64,000 nt of DNA from Hydrogenophaga flava NBRC 102514 (GTDB lineage Bacteria > Pseudomonadota > Gammaproteobacteria > Burkholderiales > Burkholderiaceae_C). This document shows positions 16,587 through 28,887 of the stretch, piece after piece (positions within the stretch are counted from its first letter, which is position 1; each line of letters starts with the position of its first letter). The translations under genes were made by a program, and so were the position numbers. Where the stretch lies: the NCBI RefSeq assembly GCF_001571145.1, contig NZ_BCTF01000007.1:62001-126000 (forward strand), given 5' to 3'. The notes under the pieces were generated by a model. That model saw only the letters and a list, made by a program, of their open reading frames with translations. It had not been told where the DNA came from and searched no databases.

Positions 16587-16895
16587 ATGACACCGCTGGA
16601 CGCCGAGTCCCTGAAGCACCACCTCGCCGGCCTGCCCGGCTGGACCCACCACCCCGAGCGCGGCGCGATCTCGCGCAGCTTCCGCTTCGCCAACTTCGCT
16701 GAGGCCTTCGGTTTCATGGCCCAGATGGCAGCCGTCTCGGAGCGGCTGGACCACCACCCCGAGTGGTTCAACGTCTACAACCGCGTCGACGTCACGCTCA
16801 CCACACACGACGCCGACGGCCTGTCCGAGCGCGACATCACCTGGGCCAAGGCCGCCGACGGCGCCTTTGCCGCGTTCCAGCGCAACGGGGGCTGA
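16587..16895 (+). CDS. phhB: Pterin-4a-carbinolamine dehydratase
   Basis: This 102-residue cytoplasmic enzyme dehydrates 4a-hydroxytetrahydropterin, the product of phenylalanine hydroxylase, so that the cofactor can be recycled. The signature is the His-rich segment ERLDHHPEWFNVYNRVDVTL. It is preceded by FAEAFGFMAQMAAVSERLD and followed by TTHDADGLSERD. The AAGGAGACACC ribosome site fixes the ATG at 16587. It lies one base before phhA, so the two proteins are made together. Regulation by the divergent Lrp-type protein is likely. Confidence 0.95.
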   Translation: MTPLDAESLKHHLAGLPGWTHHPERGAISRSFRFANFAEAFGFMAQMAAVSERLDHHPEWFNVYNRVDVTLTTHDADGLSERDITWAKAADGAFAAFQRNGG

Positions 16896-16896
16896 C

Positions 16897-17778
16897 ATGC
16901 TGGCCGAACCTGTTGCCGCCAAACACGGCCTGGCCGCTGGCGAGGCCGGCCGCCCCGCCAACGCCGACTGGACCATCGACCAGGGCTGGGACCACTACAG
17001 CGCCGCCGAACACGCGACCTGGAAGACCCTGTTCGAGCGCCAGACCAAGCTGCTGCCGGGACGCGCCTGCGATGCGTTCGTGCAGGGCATGAAGGACCTG
17101 CCCATCGGCGCGGACCAGATCCCGGATTTCCGGCGCCTGTCGGACGTGCTCATGCAGCGCACCGGCTGGCAGGTGGTGGCGGTGCCGGGCCTGGTGCCCG
17201 ACGACGTGTTCTTCGAGCACTTGGCCAACCGCCGCTTTCCCGCGGGCCACTTCATCCGCAAGCCGCACGAGCTGGACTACCTCGAAGAACCCGATGTGTT
17301 CCACGACGTGTTCGGCCATGTGCCGATGCTGATGAACCCGGCCATTGCCGATTTCATCCAGGCCTACGGGCAGGGCGGCCTGCGCGCGCAGCAACTAGGC
17401 TGCCTGCCACAGCTGGCACGGGTCTACTGGTACACCATCGAGTTCGGACTGGTGCAGCAGCGCGATGGCCTGCGCATCTACGGCGCGGGCATCGCCTCGT
17501 CGTTCACCGAATCGGTGTTCTGCCTCGACAGCCCCTCGCCCAACCGCGTGCGCTTCGATCTGGAGCGCGTGATGCGCACGCACTACCGCATCGACGATTT
17601 CCAGGAGAGCTACTTCGTGATCCGCGATCTCGACGAACTGCTGGACTTCACGCGCGTCGACTTTGCGCCGCTGTACCAGCGCGCCCTGAACGCCCGCGAA
17701 CTGCAGCCCGGCGAACTGCTGCCGGACGACGTGCTGTTCCAGCGCGGCGATGGCAGCTACCACCGCGGCCAGAGCTGA
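16897..17778 (+). CDS. phhA: Phenylalanine 4-monooxygenase
   Basis: This 293-residue iron enzyme hydroxylates L-phenylalanine to L-tyrosine using tetrahydrobiopterin and oxygen. The facial triad is visible as His136 and His141 in HDVFGH and Glu182 in YTIEFGLVQQ; numbering and spacing match the bacterial enzymes. Other conserved parts are FHDVFGHVPMLMNP and YGAGIASSFTESVFC. It starts one base after phhB and ends just before an intrinsic terminator, so the phhBA unit is closed. It feeds phenylalanine into tyrosine catabolism, the usual purpose of phhA in this group. Confidence 0.97.
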   Translation: MLAEPVAAKHGLAAGEAGRPANADWTIDQGWDHYSAAEHATWKTLFERQTKLLPGRACDAFVQGMKDLPIGADQIPDFRRLSDVLMQRTGWQVVAVPGLVPDDVFFEHLANRRFPAGHFIRKPHELDYLEEPDVFHDVFGHVPMLMNPAIADFIQAYGQGGLRAQQLGCLPQLARVYWYTIEFGLVQQRDGLRIYGAGIASSFTESVFCLDSPSPNRVRFDLERVMRTHYRIDDFQESYFVIRDLDELLDFTRVDFAPLYQRALNARELQPGELLPDDVLFQRGDGSYHRGQS

Positions 17779-17817
17779 TTCCCTGCAGCCACCCGGCTGC
17801 ATCCAGCCACTTCATCG

Positions 17818-17842
17818 ACGGCGCCCGAGGGCGCCGTTTTTG
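17818..17842 (+). terminator. Intrinsic terminator after phhA
   Basis: The perfect eight-base stem ACGGCGCC/GGCGCCGT, with loop CGAG, is followed by TTTTTGTTT. It begins 40 bp after the phhA stop and separates phhBA from the sugar operon that follows. Confidence 0.88.
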
Positions 17843-17895: not shown

Positions 17896-17920
17896 ATCAT
17901 TGAGTCACATGTGAATAAAT
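17896..17920 (+). promoter_or_regulatory. Palindrome in the leader of the transketolase operon
   Basis: The AT-rich leader contains the perfect palindrome TCACATGTGA at 17905-17914 with TGATCA at 17895-17900, only seven bases before the ATG. Because it is so close to the first gene it could be the operator for the SorC-type regulator of this operon. That assignment is inferred; no second copy was found. Confidence 0.5.
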
Positions 17921-18841
17921 ATGCAAATCACTTCTGAATCTCCTTCCGGCGCGGCAGCCCCCCTGTCTGTCGACGCTGCGGCGGTGGCGCGCTGGAGAGA
18001 GCGCCGGCAAGCCGTTAGTGCCGCTCCCGCCGCCCACAAGCCCATGCTGCTGCAGGCCAGCAGCACCCATGTGCGCCGCCAGGTGTTGCAGACCATCCAG
18101 GGTGCAGGCCTCGGCCACGTGGGCGGCGATCTGTCGGTGACCGACGTGCTGGTGACCTTGTTCGACGCCGTGCTGTCCATCGACCCGGCGCAGCCCCAGT
18201 GGCCCGATCGCGACCGCTTCATCCTCAGCAAGGGCCACTGCGCCGCCGCCCTGTATTCGGTGCTGGCGCACAGCGGCTTCTTCCCGGAAGCGCGGCTGCA
18301 GCACTTCGCGGCGGCGCTGTCGCCCCTCAACGGCCATCCGAACCGCCGCAAGGTGCCTGGCGTGGAAACCAACACCGGTCCGCTGGGGCACGGGCTTCCC
18401 GTGGCGGTGGGCTGTGCCACCGGAGCGCGGCTGGCCGGCAAAGCCTGGCGCACCTATGTCGTGCTGGGCGACGGCGAACTGCAGGAAGGCAGCAACTGGG
18501 AGGCGGCCATGTACGCGGCGCAACGCGGGCTGGGCGGCCTGACGGCCATCGTCGACCGCAACCGCCTGCAGCAGGGGGCCACGACCGCGGACACCAACGA
18601 TCTGGAGCCCCTGGCCGACAAGTGGACTTCGTTCGGCTGGGAAACCCATGTGGTCGACGGTCATTCGCACGCCGCGCTGCTGGAGGTGCTGCAGGCGGCG
18701 CCCGGCAGCCGCCCGCGCGCCGTGATCGCCAACACCGTCAAAGGCAAAGGCATTTCGTTCATGGAGAACGGCGTCGAGTGGCACCACAAGGTGCCGAGCG
18801 CCGAACAGCACGAAGCCGCATTGAAGGAGCTTGCAGCGTGA
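17921..18841 (+). CDS. Transketolase N-terminal subunit (AptA-like)
   Basis: This 306-residue thiamine-diphosphate-binding subunit of a split transketolase has the typical GLGHVGGDLSVTDVLVTLF opening and LSKGHCAAALYSVLA. The cofactor motif is GDGELQEGSNWEAA, ending near IVDRNRLQQG. Two-chain transketolases are known for D-apulose 4-phosphate (AptA/AptB), sulfo-sugars and pentose phosphates. It is the first gene of the operon and its stop overlaps the second subunit's GTG. The first 40 residues are rich in Ala and Pro and lie before the conserved part, and no good ribosome site precedes the ATG at 17921. A start at about 18044 is possible. Which ketose phosphate it cleaves is not shown by the sequence. 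Confidence 0.9.
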   Translation: MQITSESPSGAAAPLSVDAAAVARWRERRQAVSAAPAAHKPMLLQASSTHVRRQVLQTIQGAGLGHVGGDLSVTDVLVTLFDAVLSIDPAQPQWPDRDRFILSKGHCAAALYSVLAHSGFFPEARLQHFAAALSPLNGHPNRRKVPGVETNTGPLGHGLPVAVGCATGARLAGKAWRTYVVLGDGELQEGSNWEAAMYAAQRGLGGLTAIVDRNRLQQGATTADTNDLEPLADKWTSFGWETHVVDGHSHAALLEVLQAAPGSRPRAVIANTVKGKGISFMENGVEWHHKVPSAEQHEAALKELAA

Positions 18842-19788
18842 GCAAGGTAGACCACAGCAGCGGCTTCGATTGCCGCGTGGCGTTCGCCGACGAGCTGGCC
18901 TCGCTGGCGCGGGCAGATGCGCGTGTCGTCGCGGTGTGCAACGACTCGGTGGGGTCCAGCAACCTGGGCGCCTTCCGCAAGGAGTTTCCCGACCGCCTGA
19001 TCAACGTCGGCATCGCCGAGCAGAACATGGTGGGCGTGGCGGCCGGGCTGGCCAACGCCGGCTTCCGTCCCTTTGTGTGCGCGGCCTCACCCTTTCTCAC
19101 CGGTCGCGCCACCGAACAGATCAAGGCCGACGTGGCGTACTCCGACTTCCCGGTGGTGCTGTGCGGCATGAGCCCCGGCATGGCCTACGGCGAGCTAGGA
19201 CCGACCCACCACTCGATCGAGGACCTGGCCTGGATGCGGGCCATCGACGACCTGCCCGTGATCGTGCCGGCCGACCCGGACGAGACCCGTGCGGTCATGC
19301 GCTGGGCCCTGGCGGCGGGGCGCCCCTGCTTCCTGCGCGTGGGCCGCACCAAGGTGCCGGCGGTCTCGCCCGACGGCGTCGTGTTCGAGCCGGGGCGTTC
19401 GGTCACGCTGCGGCAGGGCGAAGACGTGACCATTGTCGCCATCGGCACCATGGTGTCGCGGGCGCTGGAGGCGGCGCAGTTCCTGTCGGAGGGCGGCATC
19501 CGTGCCCGCGTGATCAACGCGGCCTCGGTCAAGCCCCTGGACGAGGAAACCCTTCTGGCGGCGGCGCGTGAAACGCACGGCATCGTGACGGTCGAAGAAG
19601 CCATCGTGCACGGCGGCCTGGGTTCGGCGGTGGCCGAACTGACCGCGCAGAGGCACCCGGTGCGCATGCGCATCCTGGGCGTGACGGGGTTCGCGCCCAC
19701 CGGGTCGGCCCAGATGCTGTTTGAACACTTCGGTCTCACGGCACCGCACATCGCGCGCGCCGCCATGGACCTGCTTGAGGCGCGCTGA
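18838..19788 (+). CDS. Transketolase C-terminal subunit (AptB-like)
   Basis: This 316-residue second half of the split transketolase carries the pyrimidine-binding domain (FPDRLINVGIAEQNMVGVAAGLANAGFRPFV, with the catalytic Glu in GIAEQN) and the C-terminal transketolase domain ending with VTGFAPTGSAQMLFEHFGL. It starts at a GTG overlapping the stop of the first subunit, so the subunits are made in equal amounts. The two together should transfer a two-carbon ketol unit from a ketose phosphate to an aldose phosphate. The next gene, an FGGY kinase, would make that ketose phosphate. An open frame far upstream of the GTG is a shadow of the first subunit. Confidence 0.9.
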   Translation: MSKVDHSSGFDCRVAFADELASLARADARVVAVCNDSVGSSNLGAFRKEFPDRLINVGIAEQNMVGVAAGLANAGFRPFVCAASPFLTGRATEQIKADVAYSDFPVVLCGMSPGMAYGELGPTHHSIEDLAWMRAIDDLPVIVPADPDETRAVMRWALAAGRPCFLRVGRTKVPAVSPDGVVFEPGRSVTLRQGEDVTIVAIGTMVSRALEAAQFLSEGGIRARVINAASVKPLDEETLLAAARETHGIVTVEEAIVHGGLGSAVAELTAQRHPVRMRILGVTGFAPTGSAQMLFEHFGLTAPHIARAAMDLLEAR

Positions 19789-19797
19789 GCGGCGGTG

Positions 19798-21279
19798 ATG
19801 GACATGAACCACGTCCTGGCGATCGATCAAGGCACCAGCGCCACGAAGTGCGTGCTCGTGGATGCGCAAGGCCGCATCGTGGCCAAGGCCTCGGCGCCGC
19901 TGGGTGAACACTATCCGGCGCCGGGCTGGGTGGAGCAGGACCCGCTGGCGATCCGCGACAGTGTGTGCCGCGCCATCGGGCTCTGCCTGGACCAGGCACC
20001 ACAGGCCCAGGTGTGTGCGGTGGGGCTGTCGACCCAGCGCGAGTCGGCGCTGCTCTGGGAGCGCGCCGGCCATTCGCCGGTGTCGCCCCTGCTGAGCTGG
20101 CAGGACCAGCGCACGGTCGATCTGCGGGACCGGCTGCACCGGTCCCAGGGCGATGCCCTGGTGCGTGAGCGTTCCGGCCTGCCGCTCGACCCGATGTTCT
20201 CGGCCCTGAAGATCCTCTGGTTGCTGGAACAGGATCCGTCGCTGGCGGCGCGTGCGGCCCGCGGCGAGCTGCTGGCCGGCACCGTGGACGCCTGGCTGAT
20301 CGGCGATCTGGGGGGCGAAGCCACCATCGAGGTGGGCAACGCCTCGCGCACCCAGTTGCTGGATGTCCGCACCGGGACGTGGGACACCGACCTGCTGGCC
20401 TATTTCTCCATTCCTTCCGCCCTCATGCCCACGGTGGTGCCTTCGCTGCACCGGCGGCCGACGGCGGGGCGCTGGCACCCGCGGCTGGCCCAGGCGCCCG
20501 TGTGGGCGGTGATGGCCGATTCGCACGCCGCGCTGTACGCCCACGGCGTGCGCGCCCCCGGTGACGTCAAGGCCACCATGGGCACGGGCTCGTCGGTGAT
20601 GGGCCTGGCCGCGTCGGCCGATGTGCGCAGCACCGAGGTGTGCCAGACCATCGCCTGGGACGAGGGCGACGGGCACCGGATGGCCCTCGAAGGCAACATC
20701 CGTTCGGCCGGCGCCACGCTCAAGTGGGCGGCCGAGCTGTTCGGCATCGACGTGGCGCAGGCGGCTGCGGAAGCGTCGGCCGCCTCCTGCGACGGGCTCT
20801 GGCTCGTACCCGGGTTCAGCGGCCTGGGCGCACCCTACTGGGACGCGCGGGCCGTGGGCCTGATCAGTGGCCTGACCCATTCGACCGGGCGCGCCCAGCT
20901 GCTGGCGGCGGCGCTCGATTCGATGGCGCACCAGGTCAGCGACGTGCTCGAAGCCATGGACCGCAGCGCCACACCGGTGCGCCGTCTCCTGCTGGACGGG
21001 GGCCCCTCTGCCAACCCGGTGTTGCGCAAACGCATTGCCGCCTACATCGAACGCCCTGTGCTGCACTGCACCGATCCCGAACTCTCGGCCCTCGGTGTCG
21101 CGCACATGGCCGGACTGGGCGCCGGTCTCTGGGACCGCGGGACGCTGGCGCAGCTGCCCAGGGCACAGATCCTGACCGACGCCCCGGCCAGCGCGGCTGA
21201 CCATGTGCGCGCTGCGCGGGAAGGCTGGGCGCTGTCGGTGGCCCGCGCCCGGTTGCAGCCGTCCCCCCGCACCGCCTGA
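19798..21279 (+). CDS. FGGY-family carbohydrate kinase (glycerol kinase/pentulokinase-like)
   Basis: This 493-residue two-domain kinase starts with the phosphate-1 loop LAIDQGTSATKCVLVD. It has the typical WVEQDPLAI, the hinge region GLSTQRESALLW, and the C-terminal ATP site LLLDGGPSANPVLRK. Sequence style is between glycerol kinase and pentulokinases. Its place between the split transketolase and a ribose-type ABC importer suggests it phosphorylates a ketose made by the dehydrogenases at 25896-27478. D-apulose, D-xylulose or a tetrulose are all candidates; the sequence alone does not choose. The start could be 19795 (GTG), 19798 or 19804; the middle ATG is used. Confidence 0.88.
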   Translation: MDMNHVLAIDQGTSATKCVLVDAQGRIVAKASAPLGEHYPAPGWVEQDPLAIRDSVCRAIGLCLDQAPQAQVCAVGLSTQRESALLWERAGHSPVSPLLSWQDQRTVDLRDRLHRSQGDALVRERSGLPLDPMFSALKILWLLEQDPSLAARAARGELLAGTVDAWLIGDLGGEATIEVGNASRTQLLDVRTGTWDTDLLAYFSIPSALMPTVVPSLHRRPTAGRWHPRLAQAPVWAVMADSHAALYAHGVRAPGDVKATMGTGSSVMGLAASADVRSTEVCQTIAWDEGDGHRMALEGNIRSAGATLKWAAELFGIDVAQAAAEASAASCDGLWLVPGFSGLGAPYWDARAVGLISGLTHSTGRAQLLAAALDSMAHQVSDVLEAMDRSATPVRRLLLDGGPSANPVLRKRIAAYIERPVLHCTDPELSALGVAHMAGLGAGLWDRGTLAQLPRAQILTDAPASAADHVRAAREGWALSVARARLQPSPRTA

Positions 21280-21298
21280 ACGCCCTCCATTTCCTACC

Positions 21299-22321
21299 AT
21301 GACCGAGCTCACCCTGTCCCGCGACACGGCCGCCATGAACAAGTCCTCCGACGCCTCCGCACCCGCCGACCGCCCCAACCAGGTCTCCTGGCAGGAGCGC
21401 CTGTCCGACTACATGCCCTTGCTCAGCCTGATCGTGCTGTGCCTGGTGTTCTCGATCACCACCGACACCTTCCTGACGGTGCGCAACCTGCTCAACGTGA
21501 TCGACCAGCTCACCGTGCTGGGCATCATGGCGCTGGGCATGACGGCGGTCATCGTGATCGGCGGCATCGACCTGTCGGTCGGCTCCGTGCTGGCCATTTC
21601 CATGATGGTGATGGGCGCCCTGGCCAATGTGCTGGGGGTGCCGATGCCGCTGGCGATCGTCGCGGCCCTGGTGGTCGGTGCCGCCTGCGGCGCCTGCTCC
21701 GGCCTGCTGATCACCCGGGCCAACCTGCCGCCGTTCATCGCCACGCTGGCCGTGATGTCGATTGCCCGTGGCCTGGCCAACATGGTGACCGACGGCAGCC
21801 AGATCGTGGGCTACCCCGAGTGGTTCTCGGCGCTGTCGATCGAGCGCCACTTCGGGTTCATGTCGGTCACGGTGGCGCTGTTCCTGTTGCTCACGGCCGC
21901 GGCCGCGCTGTTCATGAAGTACCGGGCCGGTGGTCGCGCCCTGTACGCCATCGGAGGCGGGCACGAGGTGGCGCGGCTGGCCGGTATTCCGGTGCGGCGG
22001 ATGACGCTGATGGTCTACACCGTGTGTGGCCTGCTGTCCGGGCTGGCCGGGGTCGTGATGTCGACCCGGCTGGACTCCTCGCAGCCCAGCGGCGGAATGG
22101 GATATGAGCTCGACACGATTGCGGCCGTGGTGATAGGCGGTGCCAGTCTGGCGGGCGGTGTGGGATCGATCTTCGGCACGCTGATGGGTGTGTTGACGAT
22201 CGGTGTGTTGCGCAACGGGCTGAACCTGATGGGAACGTCTCCGTTCGTGCAGCAGATCGTGATTGGTGTCGTGATCGTGCTGGCCGTGATGGTCGACGCC
22301 AACAAGCGAAGGTCCCGTTGA
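21299..22321 (+). CDS. Ribose-type ABC transporter permease (RbsC family)
   Basis: This 340-residue inner-membrane permease of the CUT2 family has about ten hydrophobic segments after a 35-residue polar N-terminus. Family marks are VIVIGGIDLSVGSVLAISMM, GLLITRANLPPFIATLAVMS, and the end DTIAAVVIGGASLAGGVGSI. It is unaccompanied by a second permease, as usual for this family, and should work as a homodimer with the ATPase at 23331. The start at 21299 follows the kinase stop by about 20 bases. An in-frame ATG 12 codons later (at 21335) is possible. Confidence 0.92.
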   Translation: MTELTLSRDTAAMNKSSDASAPADRPNQVSWQERLSDYMPLLSLIVLCLVFSITTDTFLTVRNLLNVIDQLTVLGIMALGMTAVIVIGGIDLSVGSVLAISMMVMGALANVLGVPMPLAIVAALVVGAACGACSGLLITRANLPPFIATLAVMSIARGLANMVTDGSQIVGYPEWFSALSIERHFGFMSVTVALFLLLTAAAALFMKYRAGGRALYAIGGGHEVARLAGIPVRRMTLMVYTVCGLLSGLAGVVMSTRLDSSQPSGGMGYELDTIAAVVIGGASLAGGVGSIFGTLMGVLTIGVLRNGLNLMGTSPFVQQIVIGVVIVLAVMVDANKRRSR

Positions 22322-22367
22322 TTCCGCGTTCGTTTTTCATCAACCCCTGAAAACAGGAGACAAACCC

Positions 22368-23297
22368 ATGTTCAAGTTCAACAAGATCGCAATGGCTGTC
22401 GTGGCCGGTGTGGCGCTGACCGCCTCCAGCGGCGCGTTTGCCCAGCAAAAGAAGATCGGTCTGGCGGTGGCCAACCTGCAGGCCGAGTTCTTCAACATGA
22501 TCAAGCAGTCGGTCGAGGCCTACGGCAAGGAAAAGGGCTACACCATCGTCACGGTGGACGCCAAGGGCGACGCCACGACCCAGGTCAACCAGATCCAGGA
22601 TCTGATCGCCCAGAAGATCGACGCCCTGATCTACATCCCCGCCGGCGCCACCGCCGCGGCCGTGCCGGTCAAGGCCGCGCGCGCCGCCAAGATTCCGGTG
22701 ATCAACGTCGACCGCAATGCCGAAGGCGCACCTGGCGACACCTTCATCTATGGTCAGTCCGTGCCGGCCACCACCGCGCTGGGCAAGTGGATCTGCGAAC
22801 AGACCAAGGGCCAGGGCAAGGCTGTGATGATCCATGGCCAGAAGGGCACCACGCCCGAGGTCGAGCGCACCAAGGGCTTCACCGAAGGCCTGGCCAGCTG
22901 CGGCATCAAGATCACGCAGAACCAGTGGACCGAGCGCTGGGCCGCTGACGAGGGCAACAAGATCGCCCAGGACATGCTGCAGCGCGATCCGTCGGTCAAC
23001 ATCATCATCGGCCAGGCCGACGGCATCGCCCTGGGCGCAGCGCAGGCCGTGAAGCTGGCCAAGCCGGCGAACAAGGTCTGGGTGGTCGGCTTCGATGGCG
23101 ACGTTGGCGGCCTCAAGGCCGTGGAGTCGGGCACGCTGGACGCCACCGCCACACAGCAGACCTTCACCATGGGTCGCATGGCCGTGGACGCTGCCACCGC
23201 ACTGATGGCCGGCAAGCCGGTGCCCAAGGACCAGCCGACCGACGCCAAGGTGACCACCAAGGAGAACGTGGCCCAGTTCCTCAAGGCCCATCCTTGA
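22368..23297 (+). CDS. Ribose-type periplasmic sugar-binding protein (RbsB family)
   Basis: This 309-residue periplasmic binding protein has a signal peptide of about 25 residues (MFKFNKIAMAVVAGVALTAS, ending SGAFA). The mature part begins QQKKIGLAVANLQAEFFNMI. CUT2 features include QVNQIQDLIAQKIDALIYIP, IPVINVDRNAEGAPG and GVALGAAQAV-like segments. The ligand should be a monosaccharide or polyol in pyranose, furanose or open-chain form. Good ribosome site AACAGGAGACAAACCC. It sits between its permease and ATPase in the operon. Confidence 0.92.
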   Translation: MFKFNKIAMAVVAGVALTASSGAFAQQKKIGLAVANLQAEFFNMIKQSVEAYGKEKGYTIVTVDAKGDATTQVNQIQDLIAQKIDALIYIPAGATAAAVPVKAARAAKIPVINVDRNAEGAPGDTFIYGQSVPATTALGKWICEQTKGQGKAVMIHGQKGTTPEVERTKGFTEGLASCGIKITQNQWTERWAADEGNKIAQDMLQRDPSVNIIIGQADGIALGAAQAVKLAKPANKVWVVGFDGDVGGLKAVESGTLDATATQQTFTMGRMAVDAATALMAGKPVPKDQPTDAKVTTKENVAQFLKAHP

Positions 23298-23330
23298 ACC
23301 GAGTCCCCTTCTGACGCCGCGAGACATCCG

Positions 23331-24842
23331 ATGACCGTGCAAGATTCATCCCCTGCCCACGATGGCCTGGTCGTGCGCAATGCAGGCAAGAGCTATGGCA
23401 ACAACGTCGTGCTGCAAGGGGTGAATCTGGACGTTCGACCGGGTGAGTGCGTGGCGTTGCTGGGTGAGAACGGCGCAGGCAAGTCCACGCTGTCGTCGTT
23501 GGTCGCGGGGCTGATCGCCCCCGATCCCGGCACCCGGATGTGGTGGCGCGGCCAGGCCTATGCGCCCGTCTCGCCGGCCGACGCCCTGCACGCCGGCATT
23601 GGCCTGATCCACCAGGAAATGCGGCTGCTGCCGCACCTGACGATTGCCGAGAACGTCTTTGTCGGGCGCCTGCTGATGAAGAACGGGCGCATCGACATGC
23701 AGACCATGGTCGAACGCGCACAGGCCCAGCTGCACCGGCTGGGGCTGGACGTGCCGGCCACACGCAAGGTGGGCTCGCTGCGCGTGGCCGCGCAGCAGCA
23801 GGTCGAGATTGCCAAGGCGCTGACGCTGAATGCGCGACTGCTGATCCTGGACGAGCCGACGGCGGCGCTCGGCGACGAGGAAACCGACCGCCTGTTCGAG
23901 CAGGTGATGCGCCTGAAGGCCGAAGGCGTGTCGTTCATCTACGTGAGCCACCGGCTGGCGGAAATCGCACGCATCTGCGACCGTGTGGTCGTGTTGCGCG
24001 ACGGCAGGTATGTGGCCAGCCACGACCATGCCCAGGTGCCGCCGCCGCTGCTGGTGCGCGACATGGTGGGCCGGAGCGTGGAGCGCCTGTTTCCGGCCAT
24101 TCCCGAACCGGCGCCCACGGCCCCGGTGGCGCTGGCGGTGCGCGGGCTGACCGCGCCCGACGCCAGCTTCCGCAACCTGTCGTTCGAGGTGCGTGAAGGC
24201 GAGGTTCTGGGGTTTGCGGGCATCTCGGGTGCAGGCCGCACCGAGGCCATGCGCGCCATCGCCGGTGTCGACCCCATCGCGTCGGGCGAGATCACGATCG
24301 GTGGCAAGACGCTGGTGCCCCGTTCACCCATCGACGCCATCCGCGAACGGCTGGTGATGGTGCCCGATGACCGCAAGGCCCTGGGTGTGGTGCTGCAGCA
24401 CAGCCTGTGGGAGAACATGGCCTACAGCAACTTCGACCAGATCGCCCCACGGGGCTGGTTGCGTCCCGCGCGCGCCGTGCAGTTTGCCCAGGAGCTGATC
24501 CGCAAGCTCACGGTCAAGGGGCATCCGCAGCAGACCGCGGGGTCGCTCTCGGGCGGGAACCAGCAGAAGGTGGTGATCGCCAAGTGGATTGCCCGCAACC
24601 CGCGGGTCATCATCCTGGACGAACCCACCCGTGGTGTCGATGTGGGGGCGAGAGCCCAGATATACGAAGTGATCGCCGGCCTGGCCCGCGAAGGCATGGC
24701 CGTGATCGTGGTGAGCTCGGATCTTGAAGAGGTGCTGGGCCTGTCCCACCGGGTCATCGTGCTCTCGCGCGGCGAGATCCGGGGGGAGCTGTCCCGGGCC
24801 GAGGCCAGTGGCGACCGCGTGATGGAGCTGGCGGTGGCCTGA
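23331..24842 (+). CDS. Ribose-type ABC transporter ATP-binding protein (RbsA family)
   Basis: This 503-residue protein has two ATPase domains, as usual for CUT2 transporters. Domain 1 has Walker A GENGAGKST and Walker B LLILDEPTAAL, but a degenerate signature (LRVAAQQQVEIAKAL). Domain 2 has the loop GISGAGRTE with a modified Walker A, an intact signature LSGGNQQKVVIAKW and VIILDEPTRGVDVG. Only one of the two sites is expected to be fully active, which is typical of the family. It powers uptake of the operon's substrate through the permease at 21299. Confidence 0.93.
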   Translation: MTVQDSSPAHDGLVVRNAGKSYGNNVVLQGVNLDVRPGECVALLGENGAGKSTLSSLVAGLIAPDPGTRMWWRGQAYAPVSPADALHAGIGLIHQEMRLLPHLTIAENVFVGRLLMKNGRIDMQTMVERAQAQLHRLGLDVPATRKVGSLRVAAQQQVEIAKALTLNARLLILDEPTAALGDEETDRLFEQVMRLKAEGVSFIYVSHRLAEIARICDRVVVLRDGRYVASHDHAQVPPPLLVRDMVGRSVERLFPAIPEPAPTAPVALAVRGLTAPDASFRNLSFEVREGEVLGFAGISGAGRTEAMRAIAGVDPIASGEITIGGKTLVPRSPIDAIRERLVMVPDDRKALGVVLQHSLWENMAYSNFDQIAPRGWLRPARAVQFAQELIRKLTVKGHPQQTAGSLSGGNQQKVVIAKWIARNPRVIILDEPTRGVDVGARAQIYEVIAGLAREGMAVIVVSSDLEEVLGLSHRVIVLSRGEIRGELSRAEASGDRVMELAVA

Positions 24843-24878
24843 GCGCTGTCTGCACCCAGCCCCAGCGACAATCCGCCC

Positions 24879-25859
24879 ATGGCCACCCGACGCTCTGCGA
24901 CCCCCGACCTGTTGCGCCTGACCACCCGTGTGGCCAGCATGTACCACGAACGCGGCCTGCCCCAGGCCCAGATTGCCGAGCAGCTCGGTCTGTCGCAGGC
25001 GCGTGTGTCGCGGCTGCTCAAGCAGGCCGAGGAACTGGGCATCGTCAAGATCACCGTGCATGTGCCCGAAGGTGTCCACGCCGAGGTCGAGACCCGGCTG
25101 GAGACCGTCTACAAGCTGGACGAGGTGATCGTGGTCGAGGTGGACGAGGCGGCCCTGACCAGCGACGAGCTGCTGCCCCTTTCGATGGCGTCCACGGTGG
25201 CCAGCTACCTGGAGCTGATGGCGCCCACGCTGCAGAGCATCGGCGTCTCGTCCTGGAGTTCCACGCTGCTGGCGGCGGTCAACGCCATGCGTCCGATCAG
25301 CGGCAGCGGTCCCCGGTCCATCGTGCAGATCCTGGGCGGCGCCGGCCAGCCGGAAGCCCAGCGCTTTGCCACCCGCCTGACCGAGCGCCTGGCCCAGCTG
25401 TGCCACGCCGACCCTGTGTTCATGTTGGCGCCTGGCGTGGTCGCCACGCAGGACGCCAAACGGGCGCTGCTGGCCGATCCGTCCTGCCGCCAGGCCATCG
25501 AGCGCTTTGACGACCTGTCGGCGGTGCTGCTGGGCATCGGCGCGATTCCTCCCTCTCGCATGTTGCGCGAGAGCGGCAACGTGTTTTCCGACCAGGACTT
25601 GCTGGACCTCAAGAACGCTGGTGCCGTGGGCGATGTCTGCATGCGCTTCTACGACGAACGCGGGAGGCCAGTCCACACCCGTTTTGACGAGCGCGTGATC
25701 GGTATCGCACCCGACCAGATCAAACGCACCCGCCGGCGCATCGGCATCGCGGGGGGGCGACGCAAATTCGAAGCGATCCGCGGCGCGCTGCGGGGCGGCT
25801 GGATCAGCACCCTGATCACCGACCTCGACACAGCCGAGCGCCTGCTGGAACAACCCTGA
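24879..25859 (+). CDS. SorC/DeoR-type sugar-binding transcriptional regulator
   Basis: This 326-residue regulator has an N-terminal helix-turn-helix (HERGLPQAQIAEQLGLSQARVSRLLKQAEELG) and a large effector-binding domain of the SorC/CggR family (PRSIVQILGGAGQPEAQRFA, LLGIGAIPPSRMLRESG and KRTRRRIGIAGG). Such domains bind phosphorylated sugars, so a product of the FGGY kinase would be a natural inducer. It is encoded inside the operon, downstream of the ABC genes and upstream of two dehydrogenases, and probably controls the palindrome before the first gene. The start is the ATG at 24879. Confidence 0.9.
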   Translation: MATRRSATPDLLRLTTRVASMYHERGLPQAQIAEQLGLSQARVSRLLKQAEELGIVKITVHVPEGVHAEVETRLETVYKLDEVIVVEVDEAALTSDELLPLSMASTVASYLELMAPTLQSIGVSSWSSTLLAAVNAMRPISGSGPRSIVQILGGAGQPEAQRFATRLTERLAQLCHADPVFMLAPGVVATQDAKRALLADPSCRQAIERFDDLSAVLLGIGAIPPSRMLRESGNVFSDQDLLDLKNAGAVGDVCMRFYDERGRPVHTRFDERVIGIAPDQIKRTRRRIGIAGGRRKFEAIRGALRGGWISTLITDLDTAERLLEQP

Positions 25860-25895
25860 GACGGCCCGATAGGGTCACATTGACTGGAGACATTC

Positions 25896-26663
25896 ATGAA
25901 TCTTTTTTCCCTTCAAGGCGAGGTGGCCATGGTTACCGGTGCCGGCAGCGGCATTGGTCAGCGCATCGCGGTGGGCCTGGCGGAGGCGGGCGCGGACGTG
26001 GCCTGTTTTGATCTGCCCAGCCAGTCCGGTGGCATGGAAGAGACCGCCGCGCGCGTGCGGGCGCTCGGCCGCAAGGCCCTGATCGCCAGCGGCGACGTGA
26101 CCCGTGCGGACGACCTGGCAAAGGCCGTTCAGGCGGTCGAGACGCAGCTGGGGGCCCTGACCATCGGCATGAACTGCGCCGGCATCGCGAACGCGGCGCC
26201 GGCCGAGGAGATGTCGGAGGAGCAATGGCGCCGCGTGCATTCGATCAACGTCGATGGCGTGTTCCTGAGCTGCCAGGCCCAGGCGCGTGTGATGCTGGCG
26301 CGCAAGAAGGGGGCGATCGTCAACATCGCCTCCATGTCCGGCTCCATCGTCAACCGGGGTCTGCTGCAGGCGCACTACAACAGCTCCAAGGCCGCGGTCA
26401 TTCACATGAGCAAGAGCCTGGCGATGGAGTGGGCCGAGCGCGGTGTGCGTGTCAACAGCATCAGCCCCGGCTACACCGCCACGCCGATGAACCTGCGCCC
26501 CGAGGTGGCCGATCAGGTCAAGATCTTCGAGCGGGACACGCCGCTGGGCCGCATGGCAACGGTCGACGAGATGGTCGGCCCGGCCGTGTTCCTGGTGGGG
26601 CGCGGGGCTTCGTTCGTGACCGGTGTCGACCTCATCGTCGACGGCGGTTTCGTGTGCTGGTGA
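25896..26663 (+). CDS. SDR-family polyol/sugar dehydrogenase 1
   Basis: This 255-residue short-chain dehydrogenase has the cofactor loop VTGAGSGIGQRIAVG, the structural NCAG motif, and the catalytic residues Ser (IASMSGSIVN) with Tyr and Lys in HYNSSKAAV. The acidic FDLPSQ after the second strand favours NAD over NADP. It likely oxidises a polyol to a ketose or a sugar to a lactone. The PGYTATPMN loop resembles polyol dehydrogenases such as threitol or xylitol enzymes. It is in the sugar operon, 36 bp after the SorC regulator, with an ACTGGAGACATTC ribosome site. Confidence 0.9.
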   Translation: MNLFSLQGEVAMVTGAGSGIGQRIAVGLAEAGADVACFDLPSQSGGMEETAARVRALGRKALIASGDVTRADDLAKAVQAVETQLGALTIGMNCAGIANAAPAEEMSEEQWRRVHSINVDGVFLSCQAQARVMLARKKGAIVNIASMSGSIVNRGLLQAHYNSSKAAVIHMSKSLAMEWAERGVRVNSISPGYTATPMNLRPEVADQVKIFERDTPLGRMATVDEMVGPAVFLVGRGASFVTGVDLIVDGGFVCW

Positions 26664-26689
26664 GCGGCGCGCGCGCCCGGGAGCACCCC

Positions 26690-27478
26690 ATGAGATTTGC
26701 AGGCAAGGTCGTCGTCATCACGGGCGGCAGTCGCGGCATCGGTCTGGGCATTGCGAGCCGCTTTCTGCGCGAAGGCGCGTCGGTCTGCCTCGCCGCCAAC
26801 GAGGACCGGGTGATGGAAGCCGCCGAGGCGCTCGCGGCGCAGGCGCCGGCCGGTGCGAAGGTGATCGGCGCCCAGGTCGACGTCACCGACCGCTCGCAGG
26901 TCAAGGCGCTGTATGCGCGCGTGGCGGCCGAGCTGGGCGAGGTCGATGTGTCGGTGCAGAACGCCGGCGTCATCACCATCGCCAGGCTCGAAGACCTCAG
27001 CGAGGCCGAGTGGGACAAGGTGATGGACGTCAACACCAAAGGCGTCTTCCTGTGCTGCCAGGAAGCGGCGGTGCGCATGCGCGCGGCCGGCAAGAAGGGG
27101 CGCCTGATCAACACCGCCAGCGGGCAGGCGCGCCAGGGCTTTGTCTACACGCCGCACTACGCGGCCAGCAAGTTCGGGGTGGTCGGCATCACGCAAAGCC
27201 TGGCCAAGGAACTGGCCAGGACCGGCATCACGGTCAACGCGTTCTGCCCCGGCATCATCACCACCGACATGTGGGCCTACAACGACGAGGCCTGGGGCAA
27301 GCTGCTGGGCAACTACCAGCCCGGCGAACTCATGGCCGAATGGGTGGAGGCCATTCCCATGGGCCGCGCGGGGACCGGTGAAGACGTCGCCGGCCTCGTG
27401 ACGTTCCTGGCATCGGACGACGCCGCCTACATCACCGGTCAGACCATCAACGTCGACGGCGGCATGTTCATGTCCTGA
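26690..27478 (+). CDS. SDR-family polyol/sugar dehydrogenase 2
   Basis: This 262-residue second short-chain dehydrogenase has TGGSRGIGLGIASRF at the N-terminus, NAGVITIA for the NAG motif, catalytic Ser in NTASGQARQG, and the Tyr-Lys pair in HYAASKFGVVG. It ends with QTINVDGGMFMS as usual. It is related to sorbitol and diacetyl-type dehydrogenases. With dehydrogenase 1 it gives the operon two redox steps before the kinase, for example alditol to ketose. The start at 26690 is 26 bp after the previous stop; an extended frame upstream is a shadow of dehydrogenase 1. It is the last gene of the operon and is convergent with ribB. Confidence 0.9.
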   Translation: MRFAGKVVVITGGSRGIGLGIASRFLREGASVCLAANEDRVMEAAEALAAQAPAGAKVIGAQVDVTDRSQVKALYARVAAELGEVDVSVQNAGVITIARLEDLSEAEWDKVMDVNTKGVFLCCQEAAVRMRAAGKKGRLINTASGQARQGFVYTPHYAASKFGVVGITQSLAKELARTGITVNAFCPGIITTDMWAYNDEAWGKLLGNYQPGELMAEWVEAIPMGRAGTGEDVAGLVTFLASDDAAYITGQTINVDGGMFMS

Positions 27479-27496: not shown

Positions 27497-28609
27497 TCAC
27501 TGGGGCGAGACGAACGACTCGGCCACCAGGCCGTAGGCGCCCATGCTCGGGAAGCGGCGCGGATTGCCCAGCACCTTCATGCGCGAGATGCCCAGGTCGC
27601 GCAGGATCTGGGCACCCAGGCCGTAGGTGCGCAGGTCGGCGTCGTGGCCGGTTTCAGGCTTCGCGGGTTTGGACGTGCGGGGTGCGCTGGCGGCGAGCAG
27701 CAGGTCTTCCGACGACTCCGAGGGGTTGAGCAGCAGCGCTGCGCCCTTGCCCTCGGCCTTGATCGCGCCCAGGGCGGCCGACAGCGGCCAGGAGTGCGGG
27801 CTGTTGGCGGTATCGAGCCAGTCCATCAGCGACAGCGGTTCGTGCACACGCACCATCACCTGCTCGTCGGCGCTCCACTGGCCCAGCGTCAGCGCAAGGT
27901 GCGCACCGCCGAACTCGTCCTGGTAGGTGTGCAGGTCGAACTCGCCAAAGGGCGTGCTCACCGGCCGCGCCGCCACCTGGCGAACCAGGCGCTCGTTCTG
28001 GCTGCGGTAGCGGATCAGGTCGGCAATCGACCCGAGCTTGATGCCGTGCTGCTTGGCGAACTCGACCAGGTCCGGCAGGCGGGCCATGGTGCCATCGTCC
28101 TTCATGATTTCGCAGATCACCGAGGCGGGCTGCAGGCCAGCCATCTGGGCCAGGTCGCAACCGGCTTCGGTGTGACCGGCGCGCATCAGCACGCCACCCG
28201 CGGCGGCGCGCAGCGGGAACACATGGCCCGGCTGCACCAGGTCGCTGGGTTGCGTGTCGGCGGCCACGGCCACCTGCACGGTGCGTGCGCGGTCTGCCGC
28301 AGAGATGCCGGTGTCGATGCCGGTGGCGGCCTCGATCGAGACAGTGAATGCAGTGCCGTGCTTGGTGCCGTTGCGCGAGACCATGGGCTGCAGGCCCAGG
28401 AAATCGCAGCGCTCAGGGCTCAGCGTGAGGCAGATCAGGCCGCGGCAGAAGCGGGCCATGAAGTTGATGGCCTCAGGCGTGATCTTGTCGGCGGCGATGA
28501 TCACATCGCCTTCGTTTTCGCGGTTCTCGTCGTCGACGAGCACGACCATGCGGCCGGCCGCGATGTCGGCCACGAGTTCGGGGATGGGGGCGAGCTGGAA
28601 TTCGGACAT
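27497..28609 (-). CDS. ribB: 3,4-dihydroxy-2-butanone 4-phosphate synthase with degenerate GCH II domain (RibBX)
   Basis: This 370-residue riboflavin-pathway enzyme converts ribulose 5-phosphate to 3,4-dihydroxy-2-butanone 4-phosphate and formate. The N-terminal domain (about 1-205) has VDDENRENEGD with the acidic metal site, TLSPERCD, GTAFTVSIEA and HTEAGCDLA. The C-terminal part resembles GTP cyclohydrolase II (PFGEFDLHTYQD, LGAQILRDLGISRMKVLGNP) but lacks the zinc-binding cysteines: the segment after VRVHE has none. It is thus probably inactive for GTP opening, as in known RibBX proteins. The start at 28609 is chosen because the reading frame upstream runs into the riboswitch. Expression should be controlled by the FMN riboswitch. 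Confidence 0.93.
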   Translation of the reverse strand: MSEFQLAPIPELVADIAAGRMVVLVDDENRENEGDVIIAADKITPEAINFMARFCRGLICLTLSPERCDFLGLQPMVSRNGTKHGTAFTVSIEAATGIDTGISAADRARTVQVAVAADTQPSDLVQPGHVFPLRAAAGGVLMRAGHTEAGCDLAQMAGLQPASVICEIMKDDGTMARLPDLVEFAKQHGIKLGSIADLIRYRSQNERLVRQVAARPVSTPFGEFDLHTYQDEFGGAHLALTLGQWSADEQVMVRVHEPLSLMDWLDTANSPHSWPLSAALGAIKAEGKGAALLLNPSESSEDLLLAASAPRTSKPAKPETGHDADLRTYGLGAQILRDLGISRMKVLGNPRRFPSMGAYGLVAESFVSPQ

Positions 28610-28674
28610 GGCTTCGGGCGTCAGGGTTGAACGGGTTGAACAAACACCGCTCGCAGGGCGCGACGAAGCCAAAA

Positions 28675-28704
28675 CAGCCACGGCGCTGCACGAGCGCGTG
28701 GCTG
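28675..28704 (-). terminator. Hairpin in ribB leader, riboswitch expression platform
   Basis: On the minus strand CAGCCACG pairs with CGTGGCTG, with an inner GCGCT/AGCGC, followed by TTTTGG. It lies between the FMN aptamer and the ribB start. It looks like the FMN-induced terminator of the expression platform; the U run is short, so the termination strength is uncertain. Confidence 0.65.
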
Positions 28705-28718
28705 GATTGGGTTGCGTG

Positions 28719-28887
28719 TCTCTTTTATCCGGACTGTGACCGTCGGCCATGGCTTCGACTTTGCGCGGGGCATTGCCTTCCATGTCTGCTGACCCTGCTG
28801 GCATGAGCCACCAGGCGCTCGCGGGCTCCCTCGGCCGAAGCCTCGGACACCGCCGGTGGGGAGTTTCACCCCGCCCTGAGAACGTCG
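28719..28887 (-). ncRNA. FMN riboswitch (RFN element)
   Basis: Read on the minus strand, the aptamer opens with GTTCTCAGGGCGGGGTGAAA and continues CTCCCCACCGGCGGT. It then has AGCCCGCGAGCG, GGTCAGCAGA, and ends with GCCGAC followed by AGTCCGGATAAAAGAGA. These are the conserved boxes of the RFN element in the right order. It lies about 110 bases upstream of ribB on the same strand and should switch expression off when FMN is high. Confidence 0.97.

What the first reader, a model, noticed from the sequence alone, without database searches (positions are those of the whole stretch)
17921..27478. Unassigned sugar/polyol operon with split transketolase, FGGY kinase, CUT2 importer, SorC regulator and two dehydrogenases
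All nine genes are colinear with short gaps or overlaps, so they form one unit. The logic would be import, oxidation by one or two SDR enzymes, phosphorylation by the FGGY kinase, and ketol transfer by the two-chain transketolase. Known two-chain transketolases with an FGGY kinase act on D-apulose 4-phosphate, but the D-apiose isomerase of that route is not present here. The dehydrogenases could replace it by oxidising a branched alditol or another polyol to the ketose. The substrate may be new.
Basis: partly seen in the sequence, partly recalled or inferred. Interest (0 to 1): 0.75.

Follow-up and report, generated by a model that had tools for sequence, protein, structure and literature searches.

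The report
Apiose operon without an isomerase
This is a nine-gene operon that probably lets a bacterium eat apiose, a branched plant sugar, or a close relative of it, using two dehydrogenases in place of the usual isomerase; the pathway is known, but this entry step is unproven and appears in distantly related bacteria.

Summary
In detail: nine colinear genes (17921-27478) encode a two-chain transketolase (TK), FGGY kinase, CUT2 importer, SorC regulator and two SDR dehydrogenases. A wholly new pathway is unlikely. All nine kinds of gene occur in the E. coli SE15 cluster that PMC13001218 links to growth on D-apiose; it too lacks the isomerase ApsI, and its authors hypothesise that two oxidoreductases replace it. 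The two SDRs are the proteins most like that cluster's (62% and 60%; the rest 26-42%). The TK N-chain groups with AptA, and the kinase has AplK's pocket signature, not glycerol kinase's. Relatives carry an isomerase instead of the SDR pair; on the best TK tree pair and isomerase change places at least four times, so the pair probably does the isomerase's job. SDR-B looks NADP-type, SDR-A NAD-type, which fits apiose -> apiitol -> apulose. Against this, the importer's pocket type changes together with the first step, so SDR-pair operons may take in another compound (apiitol, an apioside). All activities are inferred. Verdict: an uncharacterised variant of the known apulose-4-phosphate pathway.

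The parts
17817..17838 (+). terminator-like hairpin that closes the upstream gene and sets the 5' border of the operon
   Evidence: 2 sites found in 10 kb, 4.2 expected by chance, so weak alone; sequence
17921..18841 (+). transketolase N-chain (ThDP domain), AptA-like, 306 aa
   Evidence: Transketolase_N 7.4e-43; 42% to E. coli AptA, 71% to D. gobiensis; tree
18838..19788 (+). transketolase C-chain (Pyr + C domains), AptB-like, 316 aa, GTG start
   Evidence: Transket_pyr, Transketolase_C; 40% to E. coli AptB
19798..21279 (+). FGGY kinase, AplK-like, proposed apulose 4-kinase, 493 aa
   Evidence: FGGY_N/C; 36% to AplK; pocket signature shared with AplK and not with GlpK
21299..22321 (+). CUT2 ABC permease (start corrected from 21203), 340 aa
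   Evidence: BPD_transp_2; start by position and length
22368..23297 (+). RbsB-like solute-binding protein, 309 aa
   Evidence: Peripla_BP_4; pocket comparison
23331..24842 (+). CUT2 ABC ATPase, 503 aa
   Evidence: two ABC_tran stretches
24879..25859 (+). SorC/DeoR-type sugar-binding regulator, 326 aa
   Evidence: Sugar-bind PF04198 1.8e-50; 37% to the E. coli cluster's regulator
25896..26663 (+). SDR-A (PRK06114 family), NAD-type; proposed apiitol 2-dehydrogenase
   Evidence: NF004774 436 bits, over its cut-off of 360; 62% to ECSF_RS02670; Asp at the end of beta-2
26690..27478 (+). SDR-B, NADP-type; proposed apiose reductase
   Evidence: adh_short; 60% to ECSF_RS02675; Ala/Ser/Thr at the end of beta-2 in 30 of 30 rows compared

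Best explanation
The operon feeds on D-apiose or a close derivative by the transketolase (apulose 4-phosphate) route, with an oxidoreductive detour in place of D-apiose isomerase. A CUT2 importer, under SorC control, brings the compound in. SDR-B (NADP-type) reduces D-apiose to apiitol and SDR-A (NAD-type) oxidises C2 to apulose, so the pair acts as a two-step redox isomerase. The FGGY kinase makes apulose 4-phosphate. The two-chain transketolase moves the two-carbon ketol to glyceraldehyde 3-phosphate and leaves dihydroxyacetone phosphate plus xylulose 5-phosphate. Shown: gene content, synteny, orthology, signatures, exchange with isomerase genes. Inferred: every reaction, the direction of each SDR, and the imported compound. 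The transketolase and isomerase chemistry is recalled from the apiose literature (Carter et al. 2018), which I could not read here.
For: 1) E. coli SE15 cluster: SDR, SDR, permease, ATPase, DUF2291, SBP, AplK, SorC-type regulator, AptA, AptB. PMC13001218 (passages) reports that cluster-positive strains grow on D-apiose, K-12 does not, no apsI is present, and two oxidoreductases are hypothesised to replace it. 2) The window's SDRs are the proteins most like that cluster's: 62% and 60%, against 26-42% for the rest. 3) Of 398 genomes of the phylum, 18 have SDR-B (E <= 1e-80). All 18 have a second SDR in the same cluster (SDR-A 15, GolD-like 3); 16 of 18 have split TK and AplK-like kinase in the stretch (and the window); the other 2 have them elsewhere in the genome. 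Neither isomerase reference matched in the 17 fetched stretches or in the window. 4) Of the 10 genomes with TK N-chains at least 53% like the window's, 9 have the SDR pair; the tenth (G898) has a xylose-isomerase-like gene about 1.2 kb from the TK. Streptomyces NBC_00184 has the same exchange inside a pectin-degradation locus, its TK 68% like the window's. A relative at 87% identity to that isomerase is named D-apiose isomerase by NCBI; most of the other listed relatives bear general names. 5) On the best TK tree the first step changes between SDR pair and isomerase at least 4 times (36 labelled rows). 6) Cofactor split: Asp (NAD-type) in 25 of 27 SDR-A rows, the 2 exceptions having no TK in the fetched stretch; Ala/Ser/Thr in 30 of 30 SDR-B rows, Arg/Lys before GIG in 29 of 30. 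7) Kinase signature DS for GlpK's DQ and loss of F270 in 33 of 33 cluster kinases, absent from both GlpKs examined. 8) tpiA lies in 4 of the clusters scanned (L048, L057, L100, L106), as expected if DHAP is made.
Against: Importer and first step change together. Three SBP pocket patterns were found: one in 21 of 21 window-type importers, all in SDR-pair clusters; a second in 8 of 8 E. coli/Caballeronia-type SDR-pair clusters; a third in 4 of 4 isomerase-type clusters with an SBP and in the remote TK cluster of G1033. So SDR-pair operons may import something other than what isomerase operons import. The SBP is only 26% identical to E. coli's. The kinase is no closer overall to AplK (36%) than to the genome's own GlpK (35%), AplK itself scores higher on the GlpK model (495 bits) than the window's kinase (366), and the kinase tree places GlpK among these kinases. 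SDR-B also resembles polyol dehydrogenases (L-iditol 2-dehydrogenase model 221 bits), so its direction is open. The growth data are a strain correlation; no knock-out or enzyme assay was seen. The AU test did not reject joining the window's TK group to ordinary transketolase (p = 0.122). The pair also occurs without TK in the fetched stretch: Pararhizobium A13. The genome's apiosidase-family protein lies among polysaccharide-synthesis genes, so it adds little.
Confidence: 0.65

Rival explanations
1. The imported food is apiitol, another branched polyol or another relative of apiose, not free D-apiose. SDR-A alone makes apulose, or the pair carries another compound to apulose; kinase and TK then act as in the apiose pathway.
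For: The importer pocket type goes with the first-step type: 29 SDR-pair clusters have two patterns, 4 isomerase-type clusters a third. SDR-A's second and third best solved relatives are galactitol dehydrogenase (165 bits) and a putative polyol dehydrogenase (157 bits); the best is an unassigned SDR (176 bits).
Against: SDR-B has a second SDR in its cluster in 18 of 18 genomes, more than a single polyol oxidation needs. E. coli strains with the orthologous pair and no apsI grow on D-apiose (PMC13001218).
Confidence: 0.2
2. A different sugar with the same logic: another aldose is turned to a ketose, phosphorylated and cleaved by the two-chain TK.
For: Only 26% SBP identity to the E. coli cluster; the window-type SBP pocket loses three Asn contacts; TK, kinase and importer have diverged to 42% or less.
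Against: Isomerase exchange with the D-apiose isomerase family inside the window's own TK clade; E. coli-type TK occurs with the window-type importer and SDR pair in G1015, G976, G1004 and G838.
Confidence: 0.12
3. Ordinary glycerol or D-xylulose use: a GlpK- or XylB-like kinase with a pentose-phosphate transketolase.
For: The best NCBIfam kinase models are glycerol kinase, and JGI names many relatives glycerol kinase.
Against: The score is far below the GlpK cut-off (366 against 590 bits); GlpK's Y135, Q246 and F270 are all changed; the genome has its own GlpK on C1 and XylB on C9; TK N-chain clade 99/93 apart from TktA.
Confidence: 0.03

Closest known systems
Isomerase-less D-apiose cluster of E. 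coli ST131/STc14 (SE15 ECSF_RS02670-02715; PMC13001218, passages seen)
   Same: two orthologous SDRs, split TK, AplK-type kinase, SorC-type regulator, CUT2 importer, no ApsI
   Different: importer of another type (SBP 26%, another pocket pattern), no DUF2291 protein, one colinear operon instead of two divergent arms, kinase only 36% identical
Transketolase branch of D-apiose catabolism (ApsI-AplK-AptA/AptB), Carter et al. 2018 (recalled; seen only as a reference)
   Same: two-chain TK and FGGY kinase; xylose-isomerase-like relatives of the known isomerase sit with the same TK clade
   Different: no isomerase; two SDRs in its place; another importer pocket
Fucose-isomerase-C type clusters of Rahnella, Sodalis and Klebsiella pINF102.2
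   Same: AptA/AptB/AplK core and SorC regulator
   Different: a third kind of first-step enzyme (472 aa), another importer
Fungal xylose reductase / xylitol dehydrogenase route (recalled)
   Same: proposed logic: NADPH-linked aldose reduction, then NAD-linked polyol oxidation replaces an isomerase
   Different: other sugar, other protein families, bacterial operon

Membership tests
D-apiose catabolism, transketolase branch | two-chain transketolase of the AptA/AptB clade | tested here: met
   TK N-chain clade with E. coli AptA: 34 rows 99/93, 37 rows 95/89; the C-chain was compared only by BLAST (40% to AptB)
D-apiose catabolism, transketolase branch | apulose kinase AplK | tested here: inconclusive
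   pocket signature shared with AplK in 33 of 33 cluster kinases, but overall identity is no higher than to GlpK and activity is untested
D-apiose catabolism, transketolase branch | D-apiose isomerase ApsI | tested here: not met
   no match in the window; best match in the genome 31%, while isomerases of this family in TK clusters are 46-57% like the reference
D-apiose catabolism, transketolase branch | binding protein that binds D-apiose | not testable with these tools
   needs a binding assay; the pocket differs from the isomerase-type clusters' SBPs
E. coli-type isomerase-less apiose cluster | the orthologous pair of SDRs beside TK and kinase | tested here: met
   62% and 60% identity, other SDRs in the compared set 37% or less; genome paralogues of SDR-B at most 41%
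E. coli-type isomerase-less apiose cluster | growth on D-apiose | not testable with these tools
   shown only for Escherichia strains (and Pectobacterium as control) in PMC13001218
E. coli-type isomerase-less apiose cluster | same importer with DUF2291 protein | tested here: not met
   another importer type, SBP 26%; no DUF2291 match in the window
Glycerol kinase / xylulokinase | catalytic-pocket residues of GlpK or XylB | tested here: not met
   Y135M, Q246S, F270 lost against GlpK; QRE against XylB's QMH
Ordinary pentose-phosphate transketolase | single chain, clusters with TktA | tested here: not met
   two chains; outside TktA in the tree; weak point: AU p = 0.122
Sulfo-sugar transketolase pathway | sulfoquinovose isomerase and sulfo-sugar genes beside the two-chain TK | tested here: not met
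   no such gene among the nine; TK sequences of that pathway were not compared

The most novel reading that the evidence does not exclude
Bacteria of several lineages (Burkholderiales, Rhizobiaceae, enterobacteria, Deinococcus) use a bacterial counterpart of the fungal xylose route for a branched sugar: an NADPH-linked SDR and an NAD-linked SDR form a redox isomerase with apiitol as a true intermediate, exchangeable with two unrelated isomerases, and fed in many of them by a separate importer that takes up apiitol, an apioside or another form that the isomerase-type operons do not use.
Probability: 0.45. Interest if true: 0.65.

Novelty: new variant of a known kind. Interest (0 to 1): 0.5.

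Why it matters
It turns an unassigned operon into a testable pathway and gives the open question of the E. coli paper (which enzymes replace ApsI) a concrete mechanism with assigned cofactors and a wide taxonomic base. Bacteria usually isomerise aldoses directly (general knowledge), so a conserved two-cofactor detour that changes places with isomerases would be unusual. It would also let apiose use be predicted from genomes that a search for ApsI misses.

Tried and rejected
Glycerol or xylulose kinase and ordinary transketolase: tested and rejected, with the weak points stated. Operator: the palindrome TCACATGTGA at 17905-17914 was not found exactly upstream of the TK gene in 14 other loci, and a match in a window this size is expected by chance, so it is no evidence. 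Apiosidase support: the genome has one PF13204 protein, rare in its family (4 of 250 genomes over the cut-off, its own included), but it sits among polysaccharide-synthesis genes, and only 3 of 20 cluster genomes have one over the cut-off; dropped as an argument. ribB as a pathway part: rejected, because the five ribB neighbours checked (window, L048, L050, L060, L061) carry an FMN riboswitch; L100 and L103 also have ribB and were not checked. First TK tree: rows from minus-strand loci were translated in the wrong frame; replaced, where 2 of 29 rows (L030, L039) were dropped as too short. For one search six long-branch rows were dropped, one of them the genome's second split TK, and three rows were added (G898, G1033, G857; the last two labelled by an SDR pair that lies more than 100 kb from their TK). 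First kinase residue table used a wrong anchor; its position columns are void and one search replaces them. Kinase tree rows own_C16 and own_C23 are poor FGGY matches and were left out, as was the Pararhizobium kinase. Search of the own genome with the fucose-isomerase-C protein found nothing, but without a positive control. Structure prediction was not used, because it would not settle substrates.
Full report
OBSERVATION. The nine genes are real and colinear on the + strand, with gaps of -4 to +46 bases. Corrected starts are in the parts list. The same nine genes in the same order occur in Deinococcus gobiensis plasmid P1 (51-71% identity) and in genomes G436 and G630 of the window's family. 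The kinase at E <= 1e-110 was found in 3 of 299 genomes of that family, the window's included, so the operon is sparse and patchy there. The host was not identified; its kinase is 74% like one of Hydrogenophaga sp. MI9.

RELATION TO THE E. COLI APIOSE CLUSTER. PMC13001218 (abstract and passages; not read whole) describes a D-apiose cluster in E. coli STc131/STc14 that lacks apsI and has two putative oxidoreductases, which the authors hypothesise replace it. Carriers grew on D-apiose and K-12 did not. Its screen (at least 5 of 10 genes at 40% identity, kinase and both TK chains required) found the pathway in 98 genera and 364 species, so a wide spread of the kinase/TK core is already in print. 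The SE15 locus has two SDRs, permease, ATPase, DUF2291, SBP, FGGY kinase AplK, a SorC-type regulator, AptA and AptB. Against the window: SDR-A 62%, SDR-B 60%, TK N 42%, TK C 40%, regulator 37%, ATPase 37%, permease 36%, kinase 36%, SBP 26%. The SDRs are the best conserved, so they belong to the core of this type.

CO-OCCURRENCE. SDR-B was sought in 398 genomes of the phylum (E <= 1e-80): 18 hits including the window's genome. I fetched the other 17 stretches (L104 and L113 are cut by contig ends) and scanned them with reference proteins; the window was scanned. A second SDR lies in the same cluster in 18 of 18 (SDR-A in 15, a GolD-like SDR in 3), in some of them up to about 8 kb away. Split TK plus AplK-like kinase lie in the stretch in 16 of 18; the other two genomes (G1033, G857) carry AptA-AptB-AplK more than 100 kb away on the same contig. 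No isomerase reference matched in the 17 stretches or the window. As a control, 7 loci with other split TKs (46-50% to the window's), taken from the 59 genomes, matched none of the kinase or isomerase references; the only SDR match was a general one at 32% in one locus.

EXCHANGE WITH ISOMERASES. Of 10 genomes in the phylum sample with TK N-chains at least 53% like the window's, 9 have the SDR pair and one (G898) has a xylose-isomerase-like gene about 1.2 kb from the TK. Streptomyces NBC_00184 carries that isomerase with a TK 68% like the window's, among pectinesterase, GH28 and other cell-wall enzymes; Streptomyces NBC_01450 and Rhizobium SL42 have the same combination. NCBI names a close relative (87%) D-apiose isomerase, while most other listed relatives are named TIM barrel protein or xylose isomerase; the nearest solved structure is 3KTC, which I recall as the Pectobacterium protein. 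Rahnella, Sodalis and Klebsiella pINF102.2 have a fucose-isomerase-C enzyme at this place. On a TK N-chain tree of 61 rows, 36 labelled rows need at least 6 changes among four first-step types and at least 4 between SDR pair and isomerase. Holding all seven isomerase rows (two unrelated kinds) in one clade is rejected (AU p = 0.0002). Some forks around the xylose-isomerase-like rows are weakly supported, so the exact number of changes may be lower. Counts of changes do not give direction. In the plasmid collection SDR-A (92 records), SDR-B (86) and the isomerase (20) were counted at E <= 1e-60; I inspected only part of those records. Exceptions: Phyllobacterium has SDR-A alone, Pararhizobium A13 has the pair and importer with another FGGY kinase and no TK in the stretch, and Pantoea At-9b has the isomerase with no TK annotated nearby.

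FAMILY TESTS OF KINASE AND TK. In the TK N-chain tree all 34 cluster rows form one clade (99/93) apart from other Burkholderiales split TKs, the genome's second split TK and TktA. The window's sub-clade of 20 rows (97/94) holds both SDR-pair and isomerase operons. A test that joins the window's trio to ordinary TK was not rejected (p = 0.122), so the root is uncertain. The kinase is GlpK-like in general (366 bits, cut-off 590; E. coli AplK itself 495). At the pocket (GlpK contact residues recalled) all 33 cluster kinases keep R83, E84, W103 and D245, have Ser for Q246 and lack F270; Y135 is Met or Leu in 31 of 33. The window's own GlpK and E. coli GlpK keep Y, Q and F. The kinase tree does not separate AplK-like kinases cleanly from GlpK.

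MECHANISM. SDR-A has Asp at the end of strand beta-2 in 25 of 27 rows; the two exceptions, L062 and L063, have no TK in the fetched stretch. SDR-B has Ala, Ser or Thr there in 30 of 30 rows, and Arg or Lys before GIG in 29 of 30. By the usual SDR rule (recalled) this means NAD for SDR-A and NADP for SDR-B. Reduction of apiose by NADPH followed by oxidation of apiitol by NAD+ gives apulose and would be pushed by the cell's cofactor ratios. SDR-A's solved relatives include galactitol and other polyol dehydrogenases; SDR-B's best are acetoin and ketoacyl reductases, but sorbitol dehydrogenases are among them too, so the direction of each step is a proposal. tpiA lies inside four of the clusters scanned, which fits DHAP as a TK product.

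WHAT DOES NOT FIT. The importer. At RbsB contact positions (recalled) the 21 window-type SBPs have lost N13, N64 and N190 and share one pattern (one of them with Tyr for Phe at position 15); all 21 stand in loci with the SDR pair. The E. coli/Caballeronia-type SBPs of 8 other SDR-pair loci share a second pattern. The four isomerase-type loci with an SBP (Rahnella, Sodalis, Klebsiella pINF102.2, Rhizobium SL42) share a third, together with the remote TK cluster of G1033 (no SBP match in L043, L064, L105, L151). Between E. coli and Rahnella clusters the TK N-chain stays 79% and the kinase 72% identical while first step and importer both change. So the first step may have been exchanged together with the imported compound. 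G1033 carries both importer types. E. coli grows on D-apiose with the second type in its cluster, which keeps apiose possible for SDR-pair operons, but apiitol, an apioside or another form remains open.

NOVELTY. The transketolase route is known and the two-oxidoreductase variant is in print for Escherichia as a hypothesis. Added here: the SDR pair in Burkholderiales, Rhizobiaceae, Deinococcus and other lineages, the repeated exchange with isomerases, the cofactor split, the kinase signature and the importer patterns. Searches of the held library showed no paper on it besides PMC13001218; the key 2018 paper is not held, so part of this may already be in print there.

Noticed in passing
window 27497-28804 (-), riboswitch 28712-28887 (-): ribBA (DHBP synthase plus GTP cyclohydrolase II) converges on the operon with an FMN riboswitch. 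ribB with an FMN riboswitch also neighbours apiose-type clusters in L048, L050, L060 and L061. The ORF's listed ATG lies inside the riboswitch, so the real start is probably nearer the low end.
   Followed up: partly
G000:C11:62569-63306 (L071): A second split transketolase in the same genome sits beside TRAP transporter genes and an SDR (36% to AptA): a different, unassigned pathway.
   Followed up: partly
L063 (Pararhizobium A13): Window-type importer plus SDR-A and SDR-B with a different FGGY kinase and a DRL_cat oxidoreductase, no transketolase in the stretch; its SDR-A lacks the NAD-type Asp.
   Followed up: partly
L098, L110, L114, L049: SDR-A is replaced by a GolD/DthD-like SDR (Tyr at the beta-2 end) while SDR-B is kept: perhaps a second solution for the same oxidation.
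   Followed up: partly
L045 13809-15227, L046 13806-15224, L051 8664-10082: A fucose-isomerase-C family enzyme (472 aa; the Rahnella one has no match in the PDB at E <= 0.001 and a weak match to sulfoquinovose isomerase) takes the isomerase place in Rahnella, Sodalis and a Klebsiella record.
   Followed up: partly
G1033:C10 and G857:C5 (L110, L114, L152, L153): The pathway is split in two modules more than 100 kb apart: SDR pair with importer, and AptA-AptB-AplK; G1033 has a second importer with the isomerase-type pocket beside its TK.
   Followed up: yes
SBP genes of 34 loci: Three sugar-binding-protein pocket patterns go strictly with the first-step type (window-type SDR pair, E. coli-type SDR pair, isomerase); this could be used to predict the imported compound once one of each is assayed.
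   Followed up: partly
G000:C8:66351-67337: One apiosidase-family (PF13204 plus DUF5060) protein next to polysaccharide-synthesis genes; rare in the family (4 of 250 over cut-off).
   Followed up: yes
window 16867-17778 (+): Biopterin-dependent aromatic amino acid hydroxylase directly upstream, ended by the hairpin at 17817-17838.
   Followed up: no
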